DNA from: an uncultured Elusimicrobiales bacterium
Lineage (GTDB): Bacteria; Elusimicrobiota; Elusimicrobia; Elusimicrobiales; Elusimicrobiaceae
DNA length: 64,000 nt
Reading direction: 5' to 3'
Assembly (NCBI GenBank): GCA_944325225.1
Contig: CALUZQ010000001.1
Location: 1-64,000, forward strand
Made by a program: the position numbers and the translations under genes. The stretch's first letter is position 1. The number at the start of each line of letters is the position of its first letter. Below, piece after piece: positions 35,011 through 44,832 of the stretch. Under the pieces are notes generated by a model. That model did not search any database, was not told the origin of the DNA, and saw only the letters and a program-made list of their open reading frames with translations.

Positions 35011-35360
35011 TATTCTTCTCCTCGGTATTCAACCCAGCGGTCCGGTTCCTCGCCTACTTTTACGCTGTGCAAATGCGGCAGCCGCTCTTTTAACCGGTTG
35101 AACATCCATATACACAATGCTTCCGTGGTGGGCTGTGCCAGAAAAACGCCCAAGTCGCTGCCTTCCAGGCGGGATTCCAATTCGTTTTTAAAAGTATCGG
35201 CCAGCTGGCGGAAATCAATTAAATAACCCTCGGCATTTACGGGGCCGTAAAAAGTGATTTCGTAATGAAAAGTATGCGAATGCACGGGTTCGGCCAAGGT
35301 TCCTTCGTGCCCGTGCCGGGCGGTAAAACGGCCGCATTGGGTTAAATATATTTTGTTCAT
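35010..35360 (-). CDS. PTPS-family protein, probably the FolB-replacing type (PTPS-III)
   Basis: A 116-residue 6-pyruvoyl-tetrahydropterin synthase fold. Zinc-ligand histidines are seen in FTARH and VHSH. The catalytic Cys-x3-His-Gly-His of QueD is absent; the matching segment reads LAEPVHSH, with Glu and no Cys. Glu in this place is the known mark of PTPS-III enzymes that cleave dihydroneopterin triphosphate to 6-hydroxymethyl-dihydropterin and replace FolB. It lies between folP and folK, overlapping both, and no folB is in the operon. A canonical QueD is encoded three genes upstream. Confidence 0.75.
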   Translation of the reverse strand: MNKIYLTQCGRFTARHGHEGTLAEPVHSHTFHYEITFYGPVNAEGYLIDFRQLADTFKNELESRLEGSDLGVFLAQPTTEALCIWMFNRLKERLPHLHSVKVGEEPDRWVEYRGEE

Positions 35361-36154
35361 CGGGCTTGCTCCAGTTCTTGATAAAAATCCATTATTTTGC
35401 GCGTATCTTTTACATCGTGCACACGCAGGATATCCGCCCCGCCTTGTAATGCTATCAAGTGGGCGGCCAGCGTTTGCGCTTTGCGTTTGGGGGGAAGCTC
35501 GCGCTTTTGGCTTAAAAAGGTTTTGCGCGAAAGCCCCACCAGCATACGGACGCCCAATTCCTTAAAAACGGACAGGTGTTTTAAAAGTATATAATTTTGT
35601 TCGCGGGTTTTGGCAAATCCAAAGCCGGGGTCTATGATAATGTCGGCTGGGGGCAGCCCGCAGGAAACGGCCTGCTGGATTTTATCCGCCAGGAAATTTT
35701 TTACTTCTGCGAGAAAATCTGTATAATCCGTCATCGTCTGCATTGTTTGCGGGGTACCGCGCGTGTGCATAATAACGATTTGGGCTTTAAAATCCCGCAC
35801 CAGATTAAACATTTCTGGATCCGGCGTGCCGCTTACATCGTTGATGATAGACACCCCGGCTTTTAATCCTTCCAGGGCTACGGGTATTTTTACGGTGTCC
35901 AGGGAAAGGGGAATATGCGGCCATTTTTTTCGGGCGGCTTGAATCAGCGGCAGTACGCGGCGGAGTTCTTCTTCGGCTGAAACGGGCTCGGCGTTAGGGC
36001 GGGTGGATTCGCCTCCGATGTCAAAAATATCGGCTCCGCCGGCGGCGTAGTCGCGGCATTTGGCCAATAGCGAATCCAGGTTGTTTTGCGGTTCGCCGTC
36101 GTAAAATGAATCGGGCGTAGCGTTGATAATGCCCATTAAAAGCGGTTTAGTCAT
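35357..36154 (-). CDS. folP: Dihydropteroate synthase
   Basis: Condenses 6-hydroxymethyl-dihydropterin diphosphate with p-aminobenzoate. The TIM barrel has the expected loops: GIINATPDSFYDG at residue 8, DIGGESTRPNA near 45, SLDTVK near 84, INDVSG near 105, DPGFGFAKT near 172 and GLSRKTFL near 202; length 265. Its stop overlaps the PTPS start by four bases. It is the sulfonamide target class, but nothing here indicates resistance. Confidence 0.95.
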   Translation of the reverse strand: MTKPLLMGIINATPDSFYDGEPQNNLDSLLAKCRDYAAGGADIFDIGGESTRPNAEPVSAEEELRRVLPLIQAARKKWPHIPLSLDTVKIPVALEGLKAGVSIINDVSGTPDPEMFNLVRDFKAQIVIMHTRGTPQTMQTMTDYTDFLAEVKNFLADKIQQAVSCGLPPADIIIDPGFGFAKTREQNYILLKHLSVFKELGVRMLVGLSRKTFLSQKRELPPKRKAQTLAAHLIALQGGADILRVHDVKDTRKIMDFYQELEQAR

Positions 36155-36167
36155 AGTTTTTAGAAAG

Positions 36168-36788
36168 CTATTTTATCATTTCTAAAAATTCATTTCGCAC
36201 TTCCATTTTCTTAAAAGCCCCGCGAATGGCGCTGGTAACCATAACGGCGTTGTGTTTTTCAATGCCGCGGGAACTGATGCACATGTGTTTGGCTTTGCAT
36301 ACCACCATGACTCCGTGGGGCTGTAGGGTTTCCATTAAACTGTCGGCAATTTGGGCGACGAGTTTTTCCTGAATTTGCAGCCGCCGGGCAAATACTTCCA
36401 CCAGCCGCGCCAGTTTGGAAATGCCCAACACGCGCCCTTTGGGCAGATACCCAATGCTAATGGTGCCAAAAAAGGGCTGCAGGTGATGCTCGCAGGTGGA
36501 ATAAAATTCAATGTCTTTGAGGACGACCATTTCTTCGCAGGAGCCCTCGGTAAAGGTTTTTAATACATCTTGCGGCTTCATTTTGTAGCCGCCAAATAAT
36601 TTCTGCCAGCTTCTTACGATGCGGTGGGGGGTTTCCAACAATCCCTCGCGCGATGGATCATCGCCGATATAGGCGAGGATTTCCCGCAGGTTTTTTAAAA
36701 TTTTTTCTTCGCTCAGCGAATGTTTGCCAGCTTGTGCGTTTGCAAACTTAGCCGGGCGGACGGATGATTTTTTAATAGTTTTACGCAT
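36168..36788 (-). CDS. folE: GTP cyclohydrolase I
   Basis: Makes 7,8-dihydroneopterin triphosphate from GTP, the shared first step of folate and queuosine synthesis. The zinc ligands are visible in STCEHHLQPFFG near residue 100 and KAKHMCISSRG near residue 168; length 206. The ATG lies 76 bases inside the 3' end of queE in another frame, preceded by AGGAG, an unusually long overlap; no other ATG lies before the conserved region. Confidence 0.95.
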   Translation of the reverse strand: MRKTIKKSSVRPAKFANAQAGKHSLSEEKILKNLREILAYIGDDPSREGLLETPHRIVRSWQKLFGGYKMKPQDVLKTFTEGSCEEMVVLKDIEFYSTCEHHLQPFFGTISIGYLPKGRVLGISKLARLVEVFARRLQIQEKLVAQIADSLMETLQPHGVMVVCKAKHMCISSRGIEKHNAVMVTSAIRGAFKKMEVRNEFLEMIK

Positions 36789-37306
36789 AGGTCTATATTC
36801 TCCTGTTTGTTGCTTTCGGGCTGCAGATAAATTTGAGTGTGGGTGTTTTCATACGCATAGTATTTTTGCAAATCGTCTAAATCCGTATTCTGCCCGACGA
36901 CGATTTTAATCACATCGGCTTTTTTCAGCATTTCCGGGCTGACATATTTCTTGGGCGACACGCATACAAAATCGGCCCGGCTGACATCGGTATCTATGGA
37001 GCCGTTTGTTTCCAAATGCACGGCATAACCGGCCTTTTTCAACACCGCAATTAAGCCCGTCAAATCCTGTTCGGCCGGTTCCCCGCCGGTAATAATAACG
37101 GTTTTAGCGGGCCATTGGGCCAGGGTTTGCAGCAAGTGGGCCGAGTCGGTTTCTTTTCCTTCCCGGGCGGCGTATTGGGTGTCGCAAAACGGGCAGTTCA
37201 TAGAACAGCCCGCCAGCCGCACAAATACCGCGGGCATGCCGGTATGTTTGCCTTCCCCTTGGATAGAATAAAAAATCTCGTTAACCTTCCACGACGGCTG
37301 CGGCAT
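36713..37306 (-). CDS. queE: 7-carboxy-7-deazaguanine synthase
   Basis: A radical-SAM enzyme of the queuosine pathway. FYSIQGEGKHTGMPAVFVR (residues 12-30) and the cluster motif CSMNCPFC near residue 34 identify it, with ITGGEP near 73. It has 197 residues. It overlaps queD by 26 bases at its start and folE by 76 at its end, so the whole cluster is tightly packed. QueC is not in this window. Confidence 0.93.
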   Translation of the reverse strand: MPQPSWKVNEIFYSIQGEGKHTGMPAVFVRLAGCSMNCPFCDTQYAAREGKETDSAHLLQTLAQWPAKTVIITGGEPAEQDLTGLIAVLKKAGYAVHLETNGSIDTDVSRADFVCVSPKKYVSPEMLKKADVIKIVVGQNTDLDDLQKYYAYENTHTQIYLQPESNKQENIDLCVKLLKNHPSARLSLQTHKLANIR

Positions 37307-37625
37307 TGTCGCTCTCCCAGATTTCCAGCGTTTTAAGTTTTAAATTTTGTTTGGTCAGTTCCTGTCCGATTTTTTGGAATAAAAAATTAGCCAGATTTTC
37401 GGCGGTGGGATTTTCCACCCAGTCGTTTAGAAGCTGATGGTCCGGCAGGTTGTCGTCCAGCAGTTTTTTGATGACTTTAAAATCACACACCATACCGTCC
37501 GGCCGGATTTCGCCTTCTATCACAAAAACGGCTTTCCAAGTGTGTCCGTGCAAATGGTGGCAGGGCCCGTCGTAATGGGGCAGCCGGTGGGCGGAGCTGA
37601 AAGAACGAATAAGCTTAATGAGCAT
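37281..37625 (-). CDS. queD: 6-carboxy-5,6,7,8-tetrahydropterin synthase
   Basis: Converts dihydroneopterin triphosphate to carboxy-tetrahydropterin for queuosine. FSSAHRL supplies a zinc His near residue 13, and CHHLHGH near residue 22 is the canonical Cys-x3-His-Gly-His; a C-terminal WESDNA follows. Length 114. A GAGGAG site for it lies inside the end of the upstream membrane-protein gene, which stops at the adjacent base. Contrast the Cys-less paralogue at 35010-35360. Confidence 0.93.
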   Translation of the reverse strand: MLIKLIRSFSSAHRLPHYDGPCHHLHGHTWKAVFVIEGEIRPDGMVCDFKVIKKLLDDNLPDHQLLNDWVENPTAENLANFLFQKIGQELTKQNLKLKTLEIWESDNAAAVVEG

Positions 37626-38403: not shown

Positions 38404-39006
38404 TTAACGGCCGGAATTGGCGGCAGGGGTAGAGGGGGCGTTTTTATTTTGGCAGGTAATTTCCGTTCCTAAGAAATAGATTTGATTTTTCTTAAACACG
38501 CAGGAAATTTTTTGGGCGCGGGGGGAACCGTCCGGCGCCGGGGAAAGCGGCTTTAAACAGGCGATGCGCGTACAGGAATAGGTTTTGCCGCACTGAGGAA
38601 AAGAGGAGGAGGGAAAGTTTGCGATAAACCAGGAAAAATCCAAGTTAAAAAGAAGCGATTTCAAAAAATTTTCGCAAGTCATTTCATCGTTAAATGTGCA
38701 CAGCGGCTCGGCGGAAGTGTTTTCCACCGTCAGTGTTTGGTCCAGCAGGGTATAGCGTTCGGCGTCAATGGGGTCTCCCTGCACGCGGTACACATCAAAA
38801 CAGGAAAATCCCGGCGCTTGTTTTTTGGTGCAAGTAAACCGTTGGAAAATGTCGTTCCCAGGGCAAGTATCCTCCACCAGGGCCGGATCTGTGGAAAGGT
38901 ATTGCGGCGTTTGGCGAAGCGTTTGCGGTTTATAATCCGCTTCTTCCGCGCTCCAGCAAGCCGTTGCAAACAACAAGCAGGCAAGTCCCGTCCAACCGTA
39001 TTTCAT
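38404..39006 (-). CDS. Exported cysteine-containing protein of unknown function
   Basis: The start MKYGWTGLACLL (39006) is chosen because GGAGG precedes it. A signal peptide ends near ATACWSA, allowing either lipid attachment at Cys17 or cleavage after WSA. The mature part of about 180 residues has about ten cysteines, suggesting disulfides in the periplasm. No family is recognised. It is divergent from the multi-PAS gene. Confidence 0.65.
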   Translation of the reverse strand: MKYGWTGLACLLFATACWSAEEADYKPQTLRQTPQYLSTDPALVEDTCPGNDIFQRFTCTKKQAPGFSCFDVYRVQGDPIDAERYTLLDQTLTVENTSAEPLCTFNDEMTCENFLKSLLFNLDFSWFIANFPSSSFPQCGKTYSCTRIACLKPLSPAPDGSPRAQKISCVFKKNQIYFLGTEITCQNKNAPSTPAANSGR

Positions 39007-39192: not shown

Positions 39193-42100
39193 ATGTCTAA
39201 TAATCTTTTCTCATTTTTTTCTAAAAAAGATGCACCCGCCGCTCAGGTCATTAAGGCGCTTACTCCGGAGATGCTGGCTTTTTTGCAACAATTCCCTACC
39301 GCTATTTTATTGGTTAATGCAACGGGTAAAATCGTGTTTGCCAACAGCGCCGCGGCAGAGGTGCTGCATACAGAAATTTCCGCTTTGAACGGTTCGTCGG
39401 TGGACCGTTTCGGGCTGACGATGCCGCAGGTGCGGGCCATGGCGGAAGCCAAAGAACCGCATAAAACTATTTTACAGTTAGTTAATCGCAAGGCCGACAC
39501 CGTATATGTAAGCGCCGGGGCAGGCATTCTGGCTGCTACGCCGTTTATTATGCTGACGCTGGAAGCCGTTCCCCATTTTAAGCAGCTGACGGCTGAAAAA
39601 ACTTTTTTGCGATCGGTAATAGATAGTTATCCCGTACCGGTAACAGTGCAGAATTTTGCCGGGATTTGCACTTTGTGGAACGCTCCAGCGGAAAAAATGT
39701 TCGGCTTTAAAGCGGCCGATACGCAGGGGCATACGGTATATGATTTCCTGCCAAAAGAAATTGTCCCTTCGGTCCAGCGGCTGGATACCGAAGTGCGTGA
39801 AAAACAGCATTCGCGCGAGAATGTGCTGCTGTCTTATAAAGATGCAAAAGCAGAAGAACGGACGCTTTCTGTAACCAAAGTGCTGGCTCCGTCGGAAAAT
39901 GGCAAAAGCCAAACCATTTTAACCGTATATGAAGATGTAACGCTCCGGCAGCGCTATGAACAGGATTTGCTGCAGAACCGCACCCTGCTTCGCGCCGTGT
40001 TGGACAATGTGCCGCTGGGGCTCTATACCCGCGACTGCGACAATCAGATGACCTTTTTTAACCGCCAGAGTATGAAAGTGCTGGGCGAAACCGATGTAAA
40101 ATGCGTCAATACCCCGCACCCGCACCAAGATTCGGATGTGGTGGCTTTTCACCGTACCCGCGAACAGCAGGTGCTGGAAGAAGGAAAAATCAAAGATTAC
40201 CCCGAAGAAGTTTATGTGGACCATAATGGCAACGAAAAGATTTTGCATATGATTAAAGTGCCGCTGATAGACGCCGGCCCGAAACCGCTGGTATTGTCTA
40301 TTGTGGAGGATATTACGGAGCGTCATCGCCAGCAGAAAGAGATTGCCCGGGCGAACAGTTTTCTTTCCGCCATTGTGCAAAACGCGCCGATTGGCCTGTA
40401 TGCCCGCGCGGCAGACGGTCATATGCTGCTTCGCAATAAACAGTGCGAATTGATTTTTGGCGAAACTTCCGGGAAAGCGTTTGATTCCCAAGGTTCTTTG
40501 CCGCACGAAACGCCCGAACAGGTTCACTCGTATATTGAACGGGAGAAAAAACTGCTGGAAAGCGGAAAGGCACTGGATATCCCGGAAGAAGAATATGTTA
40601 CCGGCTCCGGAGAAAAGAAACTGCTGCATATGATTAAAGTGCCGGTGGGCGGGGCGGAAGGCGAGCCGCAGTTCGTGGTAACACTGGTAGAGGATATCAC
40701 CGAAAAACGCGCGCAGGAACGCACGCTGATTGAAACGAAAAATTTCCTGCAGACGCTGCTGGACCAGGTGCCGGTGGCCATCTATGCCCGCGGACAAGAT
40801 GACAAACTTTCTTTTATTAACCGCCGGGCGCATGAACTGTTCCCGGACGAAAAAGAATACCAGGCCAAAGACGATTTCTACGGCCAGCGGGAAGAGGCCA
40901 TCTTCCGCGACGGGAAAATGGTGGAATTTCCCGAAGAATGGTACACCACCTTGCGCGGGGACAGGATTTTGCTGCATTTAATTAAAGCCCCCGTGTTTGA
41001 TAAAGAAGGCAAGCCGTTTATGGTGCTGACGGTGGCCGAAGATATTACCCAGAAAAAAGCCCAGGAAAAAGCGCTTATTGACGCTAAAAACTTTTTGCAG
41101 ACCGTCATCAATAACCTGCCGGTGTCGCTGTCGGTTAAGGATTACGACGGGAAATATATCCTCTGGAATAAAAAGAGCGAAGAGTTATTTGGGGTAATGG
41201 CCGATGCCGTTATCGGGCGCACTTCGTACCGGGCGGATATCAATAAGGACCAGGCGGAATTTTTGCGCGAAGCGGACTTGCGTGTATTTGAAAGCAAAAA
41301 AGAGCAGGATATCCCGCAGGAACTTATTTCCACCGCCAGCGAAGGCGTTAAAATTATGCACACCGTCAAAACGCCTGTATTTAATGTGGACGGCACACCG
41401 AATTGTATGCTGGTGGTATCGGAAGATATTACCGCCAAAACCAAGATGGAAAAACAAATTCGCGAAGCCAGCGATAAAAACACCCTGCTGGTGGAAAATG
41501 CCCGGGAAGGGATTGTGATTTTGGAGGACGGAAAAGTAATTTATGCCAACCGTGCTCTGTGCCGCATTTTGGGATATGAAGAGGTGCAGGAAGTAAAAGG
41601 GAAAATGCTTACGGATATGGCGGCGGAGGATCATCGGATGTTCTTAAAAGACAAATACGACGCCGTGCTGGCCGGGTCCGATGATGCTTCTTCGGCAATA
41701 GATGTGCATTTTCTTAAAAAGAACGGCAGCGAGGTGGAAGCGGAGTTTGCGGCAGTAGCGTCTAAGTATTTAGGCCGGCGCATTGTGTTGTGCTTCGTGC
41801 GCGATGTAACCCATTCCAACCGTATGCTGCGCGAAGTAAAAACCGAACGGGAATGTTTCCGCTCTGCCTTTGAGAAAAGCGTTACGCCGGCGTTTATCCT
41901 CACGCATAAAGGATACATCAGCGTAATGAACGAGGCCTGCCGAAACCTGTTTGATTTTACCGAGTCGGATAAAAATTTCTACCGTAATGTGTATATGAAA
42001 CCGGCCGTTTCGCTGCCGGCGCGTAAACAATTAAAAGCCGGCAATCCCGCCCATATGGAGTATGTGTTTGATTTTGACCGCGCCGCACAAATGTTCCCCG

Positions 42101-44268
42101 GCCGCATACAGGGAACGGGCAAAATGCCGCTTTCAGTCAGTTTTGTACCAATCAATAAACGGGACGCCAAAGACGGTACAGTAGAGGCCGATTATGTGGT
42201 GTTTTTAGAGCCCCGGCAAACCCAGGCCCCCAGCGCACCGAAACCGGCCGCCCCGGCTAAACCGGCCAAACTGCGCCGCGCGCCGGCGCCGCCGGCACCG
42301 CCGGCTATGGTCATCAGCAAAACCGCTAAAGAAATGCTGGTGCTGCCCAACAGCGAGCCGTATGTGCTGTGCGGGGACGGGTGGAAAATTGAAGTGTGCA
42401 ATGATTTGTTCTGCTCGCTTTGCCAACTGTCCGAAGAAGAGTTGCTGGGGCAGGATTTGCGGCGGGTGTTTGATGCCGATTCGCTTCCCCGGTTGGAAGA
42501 AGATTTAAAATCGCTCCGGCAGGACGGCTCTTTGGCTAACCGTGAATATCATATTAATTTGGCCAGCGGACTGGAAAATACCGCCGTGCGCCTAACGGCT
42601 ATTAAAGAAACCGACGGACGGTATCTCTTTGTCATGCGCAATATGGCATTCCACCGCCAGATTATGAAAATTTTGGAGGAACGGTCCTCTCAGCTCAACG
42701 CCCTGTTGGAAGCAACAGACGGCGTGGTGTTTTCGGTTTTGTTTGAAAACGGACGCTTTGGACATATTGAACAAAGCAATAAATTTTTAACGCGCAAACT
42801 GGGTTTTTCGCATGACGAACTGGTGCATATGCCGTTTAGAGATTTATTCTTTGACAAAAACCATAACTCCGCCCACTGTAAACAAGTGCTGGACCGCGCC
42901 CAGGAGCAAGCCGCCACCCACGGAAAAGCGGACTTTAAACTCTCCGTACGCAAGAAAGACGGCAGTTCTTTTGAGGCGCAAGTGGTTGTTACGGTTATGG
43001 ACTTGCCCTCCAAAGATGCGGCGTTGGTGGTCATGCGGGATTTGGCGGAAGATTTGGACGAAGCATCCAAAGATTCCAAAGAAGCCCAGGAACTTAAAAG
43101 CGTCCGTCAGGCGCTGCCCGGGCTGTATTTAAAAACCGACAGCGATGGCCGGGTGTTGGAAGTATATTCCAACTTGGCGTATTTGGATAATACCCTGGCG
43201 GAGGAAACTTTCTTGAATAAAAAACCCGGCACCTATTGGCCGCAGGAAGCGTCCAGCCGGGCGTTGTTTGCCATCAAAGAGGCGCTTTCCATCAATGTCA
43301 GCACCCGCTTTGAATTTGAATGGACGGTTGCCGGCGTGCTTCGGTATTTTGAAGCGATGGTTACGCCGATTACCGGCCGGGCCGAAGCCGTACTGTGGGT
43401 AAAAGATGTATCAGAGCAGCGGGCTTACGATACCAAAATACACCAACTGTATCGGCTGGCCAGCGAGCCGGGGTTATCTATTACAGAACAAGTGGATAAA
43501 ATCCTGGCATTCGGGTTAAAAAATTTCCGAGCCGAAGTGGGGCTGGTCATTCGGTTTGATCAGGGCAAAAACGGGCTGGAGAGCCATATTGTCTATACGA
43601 CGCCGAATGAGTTGAATATAGAGCGGTATATGACTTTTCCGGTGGAAGAATGCCTGGTAGATGTACCGGACGGGAATGTGGTTATGTTTCCGGATTTGGA
43701 AAATGCAGATTGCTCGCGTTGCTTGCACAAGGAGAAAGGATTTGCGTCCATGCTGGCGGCCCCGCTGTATGTATCGGGTAAAGTGCAGGGGGCGCTGTGT
43801 TTTGCTTCGCGCCAAACCTGTCGGGACTTTGGCCCCGGTGCCGAAGAGCTGATGGGGATTATGTCCCGGCTGCTCAGTTTGCGCATTGAACTTAGACAAA
43901 CGGGCAAAATGCTTAGCGAGGCCTCCCGTTCGCTGGCGCGCACCTTGGAATATGTAGAAATGCCGGCCGTGATGATGGATTTGGATTATCAGGTAACTTT
44001 CGTCAATAAGCCGTTTTTGGAAGTTACCGGCCGCCGCACCAGCAATATGCTGGGACGCGATTTCTTTACAGAGGTCGTCCGCAACGAGGATCTTTCCAAA
44101 CAGATGTTTAAAGCGGCTGAAAATTCCGCCGCCGGAAATGCGTTCCAGGTGCGTATGGACTTGCTGCATGAAAACGGATTGTATGAGGATACCGGGTGGG
44201 ATGTTTTTGCCTGTAAAGATGCCGACGGCCGGGTGGACGGATACGCGCTGATAGCGTCGGAATCTTAA
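39193..44268 (+). CDS. Giant soluble multi-PAS/GAF protein without a visible output domain
   Basis: A 1691-residue cytoplasmic protein. I count about eleven to twelve PAS-like units: eight from residue about 25 to 1025, a Pro/Ala-rich linker (about 1030-1060), three more (about 1065-1410), a GAF-like domain (about 1415-1570, with MLAAPLYVSGKVQGALCFA) and a final PAS to the end. Units 3-6 are close internal repeats, ending in variants of VEDITERHRQQKE and sharing LLHMIKVP. No HisKA, HATPase, GGDEF, EAL, methyl-accepting or DNA-binding domain is visible, and no membrane span. It may be a sensory scaffold that signals through a partner. The ATG at 39193 has AGAGGG upstream. Confidence 0.85.
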   Translation: MSNNLFSFFSKKDAPAAQVIKALTPEMLAFLQQFPTAILLVNATGKIVFANSAAAEVLHTEISALNGSSVDRFGLTMPQVRAMAEAKEPHKTILQLVNRKADTVYVSAGAGILAATPFIMLTLEAVPHFKQLTAEKTFLRSVIDSYPVPVTVQNFAGICTLWNAPAEKMFGFKAADTQGHTVYDFLPKEIVPSVQRLDTEVREKQHSRENVLLSYKDAKAEERTLSVTKVLAPSENGKSQTILTVYEDVTLRQRYEQDLLQNRTLLRAVLDNVPLGLYTRDCDNQMTFFNRQSMKVLGETDVKCVNTPHPHQDSDVVAFHRTREQQVLEEGKIKDYPEEVYVDHNGNEKILHMIKVPLIDAGPKPLVLSIVEDITERHRQQKEIARANSFLSAIVQNAPIGLYARAADGHMLLRNKQCELIFGETSGKAFDSQGSLPHETPEQVHSYIEREKKLLESGKALDIPEEEYVTGSGEKKLLHMIKVPVGGAEGEPQFVVTLVEDITEKRAQERTLIETKNFLQTLLDQVPVAIYARGQDDKLSFINRRAHELFPDEKEYQAKDDFYGQREEAIFRDGKMVEFPEEWYTTLRGDRILLHLIKAPVFDKEGKPFMVLTVAEDITQKKAQEKALIDAKNFLQTVINNLPVSLSVKDYDGKYILWNKKSEELFGVMADAVIGRTSYRADINKDQAEFLREADLRVFESKKEQDIPQELISTASEGVKIMHTVKTPVFNVDGTPNCMLVVSEDITAKTKMEKQIREASDKNTLLVENAREGIVILEDGKVIYANRALCRILGYEEVQEVKGKMLTDMAAEDHRMFLKDKYDAVLAGSDDASSAIDVHFLKKNGSEVEAEFAAVASKYLGRRIVLCFVRDVTHSNRMLREVKTERECFRSAFEKSVTPAFILTHKGYISVMNEACRNLFDFTESDKNFYRNVYMKPAVSLPARKQLKAGNPAHMEYVFDFDRAAQMFPGRIQGTGKMPLSVSFVPINKRDAKDGTVEADYVVFLEPRQTQAPSAPKPAAPAKPAKLRRAPAPPAPPAMVISKTAKEMLVLPNSEPYVLCGDGWKIEVCNDLFCSLCQLSEEELLGQDLRRVFDADSLPRLEEDLKSLRQDGSLANREYHINLASGLENTAVRLTAIKETDGRYLFVMRNMAFHRQIMKILEERSSQLNALLEATDGVVFSVLFENGRFGHIEQSNKFLTRKLGFSHDELVHMPFRDLFFDKNHNSAHCKQVLDRAQEQAATHGKADFKLSVRKKDGSSFEAQVVVTVMDLPSKDAALVVMRDLAEDLDEASKDSKEAQELKSVRQALPGLYLKTDSDGRVLEVYSNLAYLDNTLAEETFLNKKPGTYWPQEASSRALFAIKEALSINVSTRFEFEWTVAGVLRYFEAMVTPITGRAEAVLWVKDVSEQRAYDTKIHQLYRLASEPGLSITEQVDKILAFGLKNFRAEVGLVIRFDQGKNGLESHIVYTTPNELNIERYMTFPVEECLVDVPDGNVVMFPDLENADCSRCLHKEKGFASMLAAPLYVSGKVQGALCFASRQTCRDFGPGAEELMGIMSRLLSLRIELRQTGKMLSEASRSLARTLEYVEMPAVMMDLDYQVTFVNKPFLEVTGRRTSNMLGRDFFTEVVRNEDLSKQMFKAAENSAAGNAFQVRMDLLHENGLYEDTGWDVFACKDADGRVDGYALIASES

Positions 44269-44376: not shown

Positions 44377-44832
44377 ATGAACCGAGGTTTTACATTGGTA
44401 GAGTTATTGGTGGTAGTGCTGATTATTGGGATTTTGTCTTCTATTGCTTTGCCGCAATATGAAACGGCTGTAGAAAAAAGCCGTGCTTCAGAAGCATTCA
44501 TCAACGGGCGGTCTATTTTAGATGCGATGAACCGTTCCATTAATGAACGCCCCAACGAACCGCCGACCACGCGCGCTTCGCTGGATATCAAGCTTAGCGG
44601 CGGGGAATGGAACAGTGCGGCTACGCAGTATCAAACTAAGGATTTTACTTATGATTTATCCGCCGGGGACCGGCTGGTGGTAACAAGAACTTTTGGAAAT
44701 GGCCAAAAATATACGCTTACCTTTTATAATAATTTAAGTTCCCGCCCGGACGACCGGGTATGCACGGCCTCTGGTGATAAGGCGGAAAATCTGTGCCGCT
44801 CTTTTGAAGGGTCGGGCTATAAACGCAGTTGA
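44377..44832 (+). CDS. Type IV pilin-like protein, short leader
   Basis: MNRGFTLVELLVV gives a three-residue leader before the prepilin cleavage site; the helix and SSIALPQYETAVEKSRASEAF follow (the last part seen across two segments). There are two cysteines near the C-terminus. It has AGGAGG, and a perfect 12-base palindrome GGGGCTAGCCCC (44321-44332) and TATGAT upstream. It lies 108 bases after the multi-PAS gene on the same strand, with no clear terminator between. Confidence 0.88.
   Translation: MNRGFTLVELLVVVLIIGILSSIALPQYETAVEKSRASEAFINGRSILDAMNRSINERPNEPPTTRASLDIKLSGGEWNSAATQYQTKDFTYDLSAGDRLVVTRTFGNGQKYTLTFYNNLSSRPDDRVCTASGDKAENLCRSFEGSGYKRS

What the first reader, a model, noticed from the sequence alone, without database searches (positions are those of the whole stretch)
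39193..44268. 1691-residue multi-PAS protein with no output domain
About a dozen PAS-like units and one GAF, without kinase, cyclase, methyl-accepting, DNA-binding or membrane segments. Units 3-6 look like recent internal duplications. Sensory proteins normally end in an effector; this one could be a cytoplasmic scaffold or work by binding a partner. It is followed 108 bases later by a pilin gene with no clear terminator, so control of pili is a possible but unproven link.
Basis: partly seen in the sequence, partly recalled or inferred. Interest (0 to 1): 0.65.

Follow-up and report, generated by a model that had tools for sequence, protein, structure and literature searches.

The report
Kinase-less PAS sensor array, Elusimicrobiota genus
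A large protein built almost only from sensory (PAS) domains, with no switch of its own to flip, is kept by an entire genus of gut bacteria and may act as a detachable antenna for a small kinase that has lost its own sensor.

Summary
In detail: 39193-44268 encodes an intact 1691-aa protein of about 12 PAS units plus one GAF, with no kinase, cyclase, MCP, HTH or clear transmembrane segment. It is not a broken kinase: orthologs occur in 60 of 60 other genomes of this Elusimicrobiales genus, nearly all complete ones end at the same C-terminal PAS, and dN/dS is 0.045-0.075. Units 3-6 are old duplications that predate the genus, not recent ones. The pilin link is weak: the genome has 80 pilin-type genes, and pilin adjacency is confined to close relatives. 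The conserved neighbour is a small exported Cys-rich protein (38404-39006), adjacent in 46 of 54 scorable genomes, in two orientations.

My best explanation is a sensory hub acting in trans. The genome's only sensory_box matches lie in this gene. The same genus carries a bare HisKA-HATPase kinase whose syntenic homolog in the neighbouring family still has a GAF and a PAS-like region. Rate covariation is consistent with array-kinase coupling, but also with a second kinase, so the partner is unproven. No sequence evidence shows that the array took over that kinase's sensor, and one species lacks the array's C-terminal third.

The parts
39193..44268 (+). multi-PAS/GAF protein gene, 1691 aa, no output domain
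   Evidence: orthologs in 60 of 60 other same-genus genomes; dN/dS 0.045-0.075 in 7 pairs
39262..39966 (+). PAS units U1 and U2 (residues 24-258)
   Evidence: Pfam PAS 26.1 bits for U1, PAS_4 43.7 bits for U2; least conserved units
39985..41454 (+). related PAS units U3-U6 (residues 265-754); duplications older than the genus
   Evidence: 26-42% identity to each other; unit tree groups by position; U5 absent or doubled in some lineages
41347..41517 (+). U6-U7 junction (residues 719-775), most conserved stretch
   Evidence: mean pairwise identity 0.81 over 780 pairs of orthologs
41476..42210 (+). PAS unit U7 and probable PAS unit U8 (residues 762-1006)
   Evidence: sensory_box 61.6 bits for U7; U8 only by weak PAS match E 0.26 and conservation
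42211..42339 (+). variable Pro/Ala-rich linker (residues 1007-1049)
   Evidence: mean pairwise identity 0.26; pLDDT under 50 in model
42340..43440 (+). PAS units U9, U10, U11 (residues 1050-1416)
   Evidence: Pfam PAS_9 28.4 and 33.3 bits for U9 and U10; U11 sub-threshold; PAS-like folds, pLDDT mostly 70-89
43465..43896 (+). GAF domain (residues 1425-1568)
   Evidence: PF01590 32.7 bits; poorly modelled
43936..44265 (+). C-terminal PAS U12 (residues 1582-1691); the protein ends at its last strand with no helix or kinase after it
   Evidence: PF00989 24.9 bits; common C-terminus in 50 aligned proteins
38404..39006 (-). conserved neighbour: exported Cys-rich 200-aa protein, no known family (38404-38406 is the stop codon)
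   Evidence: no Pfam/NCBIfam hit; in 56 of 61 same-genus genomes and 0 of 40 of the other family; adjacent in 46 of 54 scorable genomes
44377..44832 (+). type IV pilin-like gene, 108 bp downstream; not a conserved neighbour
   Evidence: N_methyl 31.5 bits; one of 80 such genes in the genome
44880..44900 (.). terminator-like stem after the pilin gene
   Evidence: 9-pair stem on the + strand, 8-pair on the - strand

Best explanation
A soluble, genus-wide sensory hub: about 12 PAS units and a GAF in a row integrate internal cues and pass the result to a partner by direct contact, because the output module sits on another polypeptide. The most likely partner is a histidine kinase acting in trans, above all the bare HisKA-HATPase kinase of the same genus (G000:C25:17901-18650), whose homolog at the same locus in the neighbouring family still has a GAF and a PAS-like region in front of the kinase. 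Shown: intact gene, constant C-terminus, no effector, sole source of sensory_box matches in the genome, sensor-less kinase at a conserved locus. Suggested: rate covariation with the kinase. Inferred: physical contact, direction of signal, ligands.
For: No output domain by Pfam, NCBIfam, PDB sequence search or model. Ortholog in 60 of 60 other same-genus genomes, purifying selection, shared C-terminus. All 9 sensory_box matches of the genome at E<=1 are in this gene. Bare kinase in 60 of 61 same-genus genomes in open frames of at most 281 aa, against about 518-569 aa frames in 33 of 40 other-family genomes; gene k0 lies upstream of it in 14 of 14 loci of both families and in 44 of 44 same-genus genomes. 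The three other-family homologs scanned have GAF+HisKA+HATPase, the bare kinase HisKA+HATPase only. Array-kinase distance covariation ranked 1 of 15, 1 or 2 of 36 and 1 or 2 of 55; branch-based ranks 3 of 36, 1 of 55, 6 of 91 and 1 of 15. Nearest other-family relatives are PAS histidine kinases: HisKA in 7 of 8.
Against: Kinase and array genes are not neighbours. The array's GAF-PAS end shows no specific similarity to the lost GAF/PAS-like region (hhalign Prob 2.4%, no better than control units; weak test). In branch-based tests a HAMP kinase covaries with the array more strongly than the bare kinase does (0.57 and 0.70), and the kinase's neighbour k12 also covaries with it, so specificity is unresolved; these correlations carry no p-value. 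G041 keeps a kinase although its array stops at residue 1003 with no C-terminal remnant found. The bare kinase could simply be constitutive or controlled by k12.
Confidence: 0.4

Rival explanations
1. The hub controls a non-kinase partner by direct binding, in the way NifL holds NifA or AppA holds PpsR, for example a transcription factor or a lone receiver protein.
For: PpsR (1st), the AppA-PpsR2 core complex and the NifL-NifA complex are among the top 50 fold matches of the C-terminal model. The genome has three lone receiver proteins.
Against: No conserved adjacent regulator gene was found; fold matches reflect the common PAS fold only.
Confidence: 0.25
2. It is a multivalent scaffold or condensate organiser: the PAS units work mainly as dimerising and docking modules, not as ligand sensors.
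For: Unit number varies between lineages; the most conserved stretch is an inter-unit junction (U6-U7, 81% identity). A scaffold that regulates a histidine kinase through its PAS domains is known: PodJ-PleC (passages of PMC8980812).
Against: U6 as a whole is also strongly conserved (0.73), which a mere spacer or docking repeat would not need; ligand pockets were not analysed, so this is weak.
Confidence: 0.2
3. It works with the exported Cys-rich neighbour (38404-39006) in envelope or redox homeostasis, the pair being one unit.
For: Adjacent in 46 of 54 scorable genomes, divergent in 29 and same-strand in 17; among 101 genomes the neighbour occurs only in this genus, as do close relatives of the array.
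Against: No rate covariation (partial r -0.18); separated by 103 kb in G037; predicted opposite sides of the membrane; no domain evidence.
Confidence: 0.12
4. It is a decaying relic of a PAS histidine kinase that lost its catalytic end.
For: Nearest other-family relatives are PAS kinases; G041 and G022 have truncated or interrupted copies.
Against: dN/dS 0.045-0.075, presence in 60 of 60 relatives, constant C-terminus.
Confidence: 0.03

Closest known systems
PAS-GAF sensor histidine kinases of Elusimicrobiales
   Same: strings of PAS_4/PAS_9 units, in some with a GAF
   Different: those carry HisKA in 7 of 8 cases examined; here HisKA and HATPase are absent
PodJ-PleC of Caulobacter
   Same: a non-kinase protein regulates a histidine kinase by contact with PAS domains (PMC8980812, passages read)
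   Different: there the PAS domains are on the kinase and the binding part of the scaffold is disordered; here the PAS domains are on the non-kinase protein
PpsR / AppA-PpsR and NifL-NifA
   Same: PAS proteins that act by protein-protein binding (recalled); top-50 fold matches; PpsR multi-PAS oligomerisation (PMC3949515, search listing only)
   Different: PpsR has an HTH and NifL a kinase-like end (recalled); this protein has neither
H-NOX or NosP stand-alone sensors with a separate kinase (recalled, not tested here)
   Same: sensor and kinase on two polypeptides (recalled)
   Different: single small sensor domains, usually encoded next to the kinase (recalled)

Membership tests
PAS domain sensor proteins (PAS_4 / PAS_9 / sensory_box) | PAS domains over curated cut-offs | tested here: met
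Sensor histidine kinase | HisKA and HATPase_c domains | tested here: not met
   none at E<=1 in 1691 aa, none in the eight tiles; the gene is not among the genome's 8 HATPase_c hits
Diguanylate cyclase / MCP / one-component regulator | GGDEF, EAL, MCPsignal or HTH domain | tested here: not met
   no such Pfam match; Diguanyl_cycl_sensor and MLTR_LBD are sensor/ligand-domain models, not effectors
Detached sensor acting on a kinase in trans | a sensor-less cytoplasmic kinase in the same genomes | tested here: met
   bare kinase in 60 of 61 same-genus genomes; HisKA+HATPase only
Detached sensor acting on a kinase in trans | coupled evolution with that kinase and not with others | tested here: inconclusive
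   high rank for the bare kinase, but a HAMP kinase ranks higher in two branch-based sets
Detached sensor acting on a kinase in trans | the array's GAF-PAS end descends from the kinase's lost sensor | tested here: inconclusive
   hhalign Prob 2.4%, not above controls
Detached sensor acting on a kinase in trans | physical contact that changes kinase activity | not testable with these tools
   needs biochemistry

The most novel reading that the evidence does not exclude
A whole bacterial genus has split a sensor kinase system: PAS-type sensing is concentrated in one kinase-less array of mostly 11-13 units, while a once sensor-bearing kinase has been stripped to its catalytic core and takes orders from the array in trans, perhaps together with a membrane kinase.
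Probability: 0.25. Interest if true: 0.75.

Novelty: new variant of a known kind. Interest (0 to 1): 0.52.

Why it matters
PAS arrays are usually read as the front end of an enzyme. A conserved array without one, in a genus whose matching kinase has lost its own sensor, would be a natural case of sensing and output evolving on separate proteins. It gives a defined pair of proteins and defined regions (U6-U7 junction, GAF-U12) on which trans-regulation of a histidine kinase can be tested directly. My paper searches for this genus, for Elusimicrobium minutum with PAS or pilin, and for PAS proteins without output showed, in their listings, no description of this protein.

Tried and rejected
Truncated-kinase idea: rejected on conservation and the shared C-terminus. 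Recent duplication of U3-U6: rejected. Pilin link: not conserved, 80 pilin-type genes. Structure of the exported neighbour: model useless, mean pLDDT 38.4. Descent of the array's GAF-PAS end from the kinase's lost sensor: no support. Covariation array/exported neighbour: none. The first covariation run used mainly exported or membrane controls; it was repeated with kinase, regulator and fol/que controls, which weakened the claim of specificity. Context-B controls (nadB, FKBP, IMPDH-like) were collected but not used in a test.

Rows dropped: the ortholog alignment used 49 of 59 loci plus the window (over 1400 aa; L098 cut by a contig end and L102 split by an in-frame stop left out); conservation used 40 of those 50 rows. 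Covariation used 40, 34, 23, 18 or 15 of 61 same-genus genomes, according to which genes had been fetched and passed length filters. The adjacency count scored 54 of 61 genomes: 4 lacked a visible 5' end, 3 lacked the neighbour gene; of the 8 scored as not adjacent, G005 and G048 have it within 2 kb, G009, G017, G040, G051 and G060 have the two genes on different contigs and G037 has them 103 kb apart.

Full report
WHAT IS THERE. The ORF at 39193-44268 (+) is intact, 1691 aa from its ATG. Pfam finds PAS families in up to 9 stretches each and one GAF, and no effector domain at E<=1; NCBIfam finds sensory_box in 8 stretches, and its kinase-named matches are far below their cut-offs; PDB sequence matches are PAS sensors only. 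I divide the protein into U1-U8, a Pro/Ala-rich linker (1007-1049), U9-U11, GAF (1425-1568) and U12 (1582-1691). U8 and U11 are weak by profile; U11 has a PAS-like fold in the model, U8 was outside the modelled stretch. The AlphaFold model of 1000-1691 (mean pLDDT 60.7) shows no additional domain, and its best PDB matches are PpsR, DosP, LOV-HK and FixL PAS regions.

NOT A RELIC. The window comes from an Elusimicrobiales genome (1.63 Mb, 55 contigs). Related records found include 'Elusimicrobia bacterium UBA1436' and 'uncultured Elusimicrobiales'; that the genus is Candidatus Avelusimicrobium or its neighbour is recalled, not shown (taxonomy entry). Orthologs are in 60 of 60 other genomes of the genus, while the 40 genomes of the other family in the same search gave only generic PAS matches, 22-34% identical in the rows listed. 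All 50 aligned proteins end within a few residues of the same C-terminal strand. dN/dS is 0.045-0.075 in 7 pairs. U6 is the most conserved unit (mean pairwise identity 0.73) and the U6-U7 junction reaches 0.81.

OLD DUPLICATIONS, SOME VARIATION. U3-U6 resemble one another at 26-42%. In a tree of units from 16 proteins (the window and 15 orthologs) they group by position, so the duplications predate the genus. The U5 copy is absent from L087, L088, L090, L091 and L096 and doubled in L078, L080 and L083. G059 lacks roughly residues 1007-1565 but keeps U12; G036, cut by a contig end, shows the same junction; G041 stops at residue 1003 with no C-terminal remnant found. The C-terminal third is therefore not needed in every species.

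NEIGHBOURS. In 59 ortholog loci the most frequent neighbour within 5 kb is the gene at 38404-39006, found in 47 loci. It encodes a 200-aa protein with a signal-peptide-like start and many conserved cysteines, no Pfam or NCBIfam match, present in 56 of 61 same-genus genomes and 0 of 40 of the other family. It lies within 400 bp upstream in 46 of 54 scorable genomes, divergent in 29 and on the same strand in 17. The same-strand arrangement is mostly at another genomic place (nadB-like gene upstream, FKBP-like gene downstream; names by eye), so the pair has kept together through relocation. Pilin genes number 80 in this genome and are next to the array mainly in its close relatives. There is no terminator-like site in the 108-bp gap to the pilin, so read-through in this species is possible.

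A KINASE WITHOUT A SENSOR. The genome has 8 HATPase_c proteins. By reading their sequences two are GyrB- and MutL-like. The other six are kinases: one hybrid with a receiver, three with membrane segments, one HisKA_3 type with its own PAS-like region by eye, and one 250-aa protein that is HisKA and HATPase only (Pfam for four of the six). That bare kinase is in 60 of 61 same-genus genomes; in 33 of 40 other-family genomes its best relative is in a frame of about 520-570 aa. The same upstream gene (k0) precedes it in 14 of 14 loci of both families and 44 of 44 same-genus genomes, so it is the same locus. The three other-family members scanned have GAF+HisKA+HATPase; the region between GAF and HisKA looks PAS-like by eye but has no Pfam match. 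All 9 sensory_box matches of the genome lie in the window gene. The genus thus has a sensor without a kinase and a kinase without a sensor.

ARE THEY COUPLED? Using protein distances corrected for the mean of the other genes, array-kinase was the strongest of 15 pairs over 40 genomes (0.60; next 0.34), and the GAF-U12 end gave the highest value of the array pieces (0.67). With added controls it ranked 1 or 2 of 36 and 1 or 2 of 55. With branch lengths on a fixed tree it ranked 3 of 36, 1 of 55, 6 of 91 and 1 of 15, while a HAMP kinase was the array's top partner in two sets (0.57, 0.70). So the array evolves in step with kinases, the bare one among them, but the test does not single out one partner. 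Pairs of distances are not independent, and I give no p-values. The array's GAF-PAS end is not recognisably the kinase's lost sensor.

MECHANISM. Inference: cues bound by PAS/GAF units alter the array, presumably a dimer; the change is read by a kinase docking on a conserved surface, with the U6-U7 junction and the GAF-U12 end as candidates. A precedent for kinase control through contact with PAS domains is PodJ-PleC (passages of PMC8980812). Rivals are a NifL- or PpsR-like partner protein, a scaffold role, or a joint role with the exported neighbour.

VERDICT. A real, intact, conserved output-less PAS array; a new variant of a known kind. The detached-sensor model is testable and moderately supported; the partner is unproven.

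Noticed in passing
L068, L069, L070 (own genome C16 and C3): Three predicted exported proteins (signal-peptide-like start) carry a C-terminal receiver-like domain (PF00072 30-38 bits), which is unusual for a cytoplasmic phosphotransfer domain.
   Followed up: no
window 38404-39006 (-): Genus-restricted exported Cys-rich protein family with an almost invariant core, no known family.
   Followed up: partly
G000, 80 places, seven of them in the window: 80 prepilin-type N-terminal motifs in a 1.6-Mb genome.
   Followed up: partly
L119:6381-6902 (-): 174-aa gene (k12) overlapping the end of the bare kinase gene, no Pfam match, same neighbour in 4 of 4 same-genus loci; it covaries with the array.
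   Followed up: partly
L102 (G022), array residue about 1555: In-frame TAA splits the array gene before U12 in this genome.
   Followed up: no
window 35357-37625 (-): Folate and queuosine-type genes (folP, folE, queE, queD by eye) sit upstream of the array in one of its genomic contexts.
   Followed up: no
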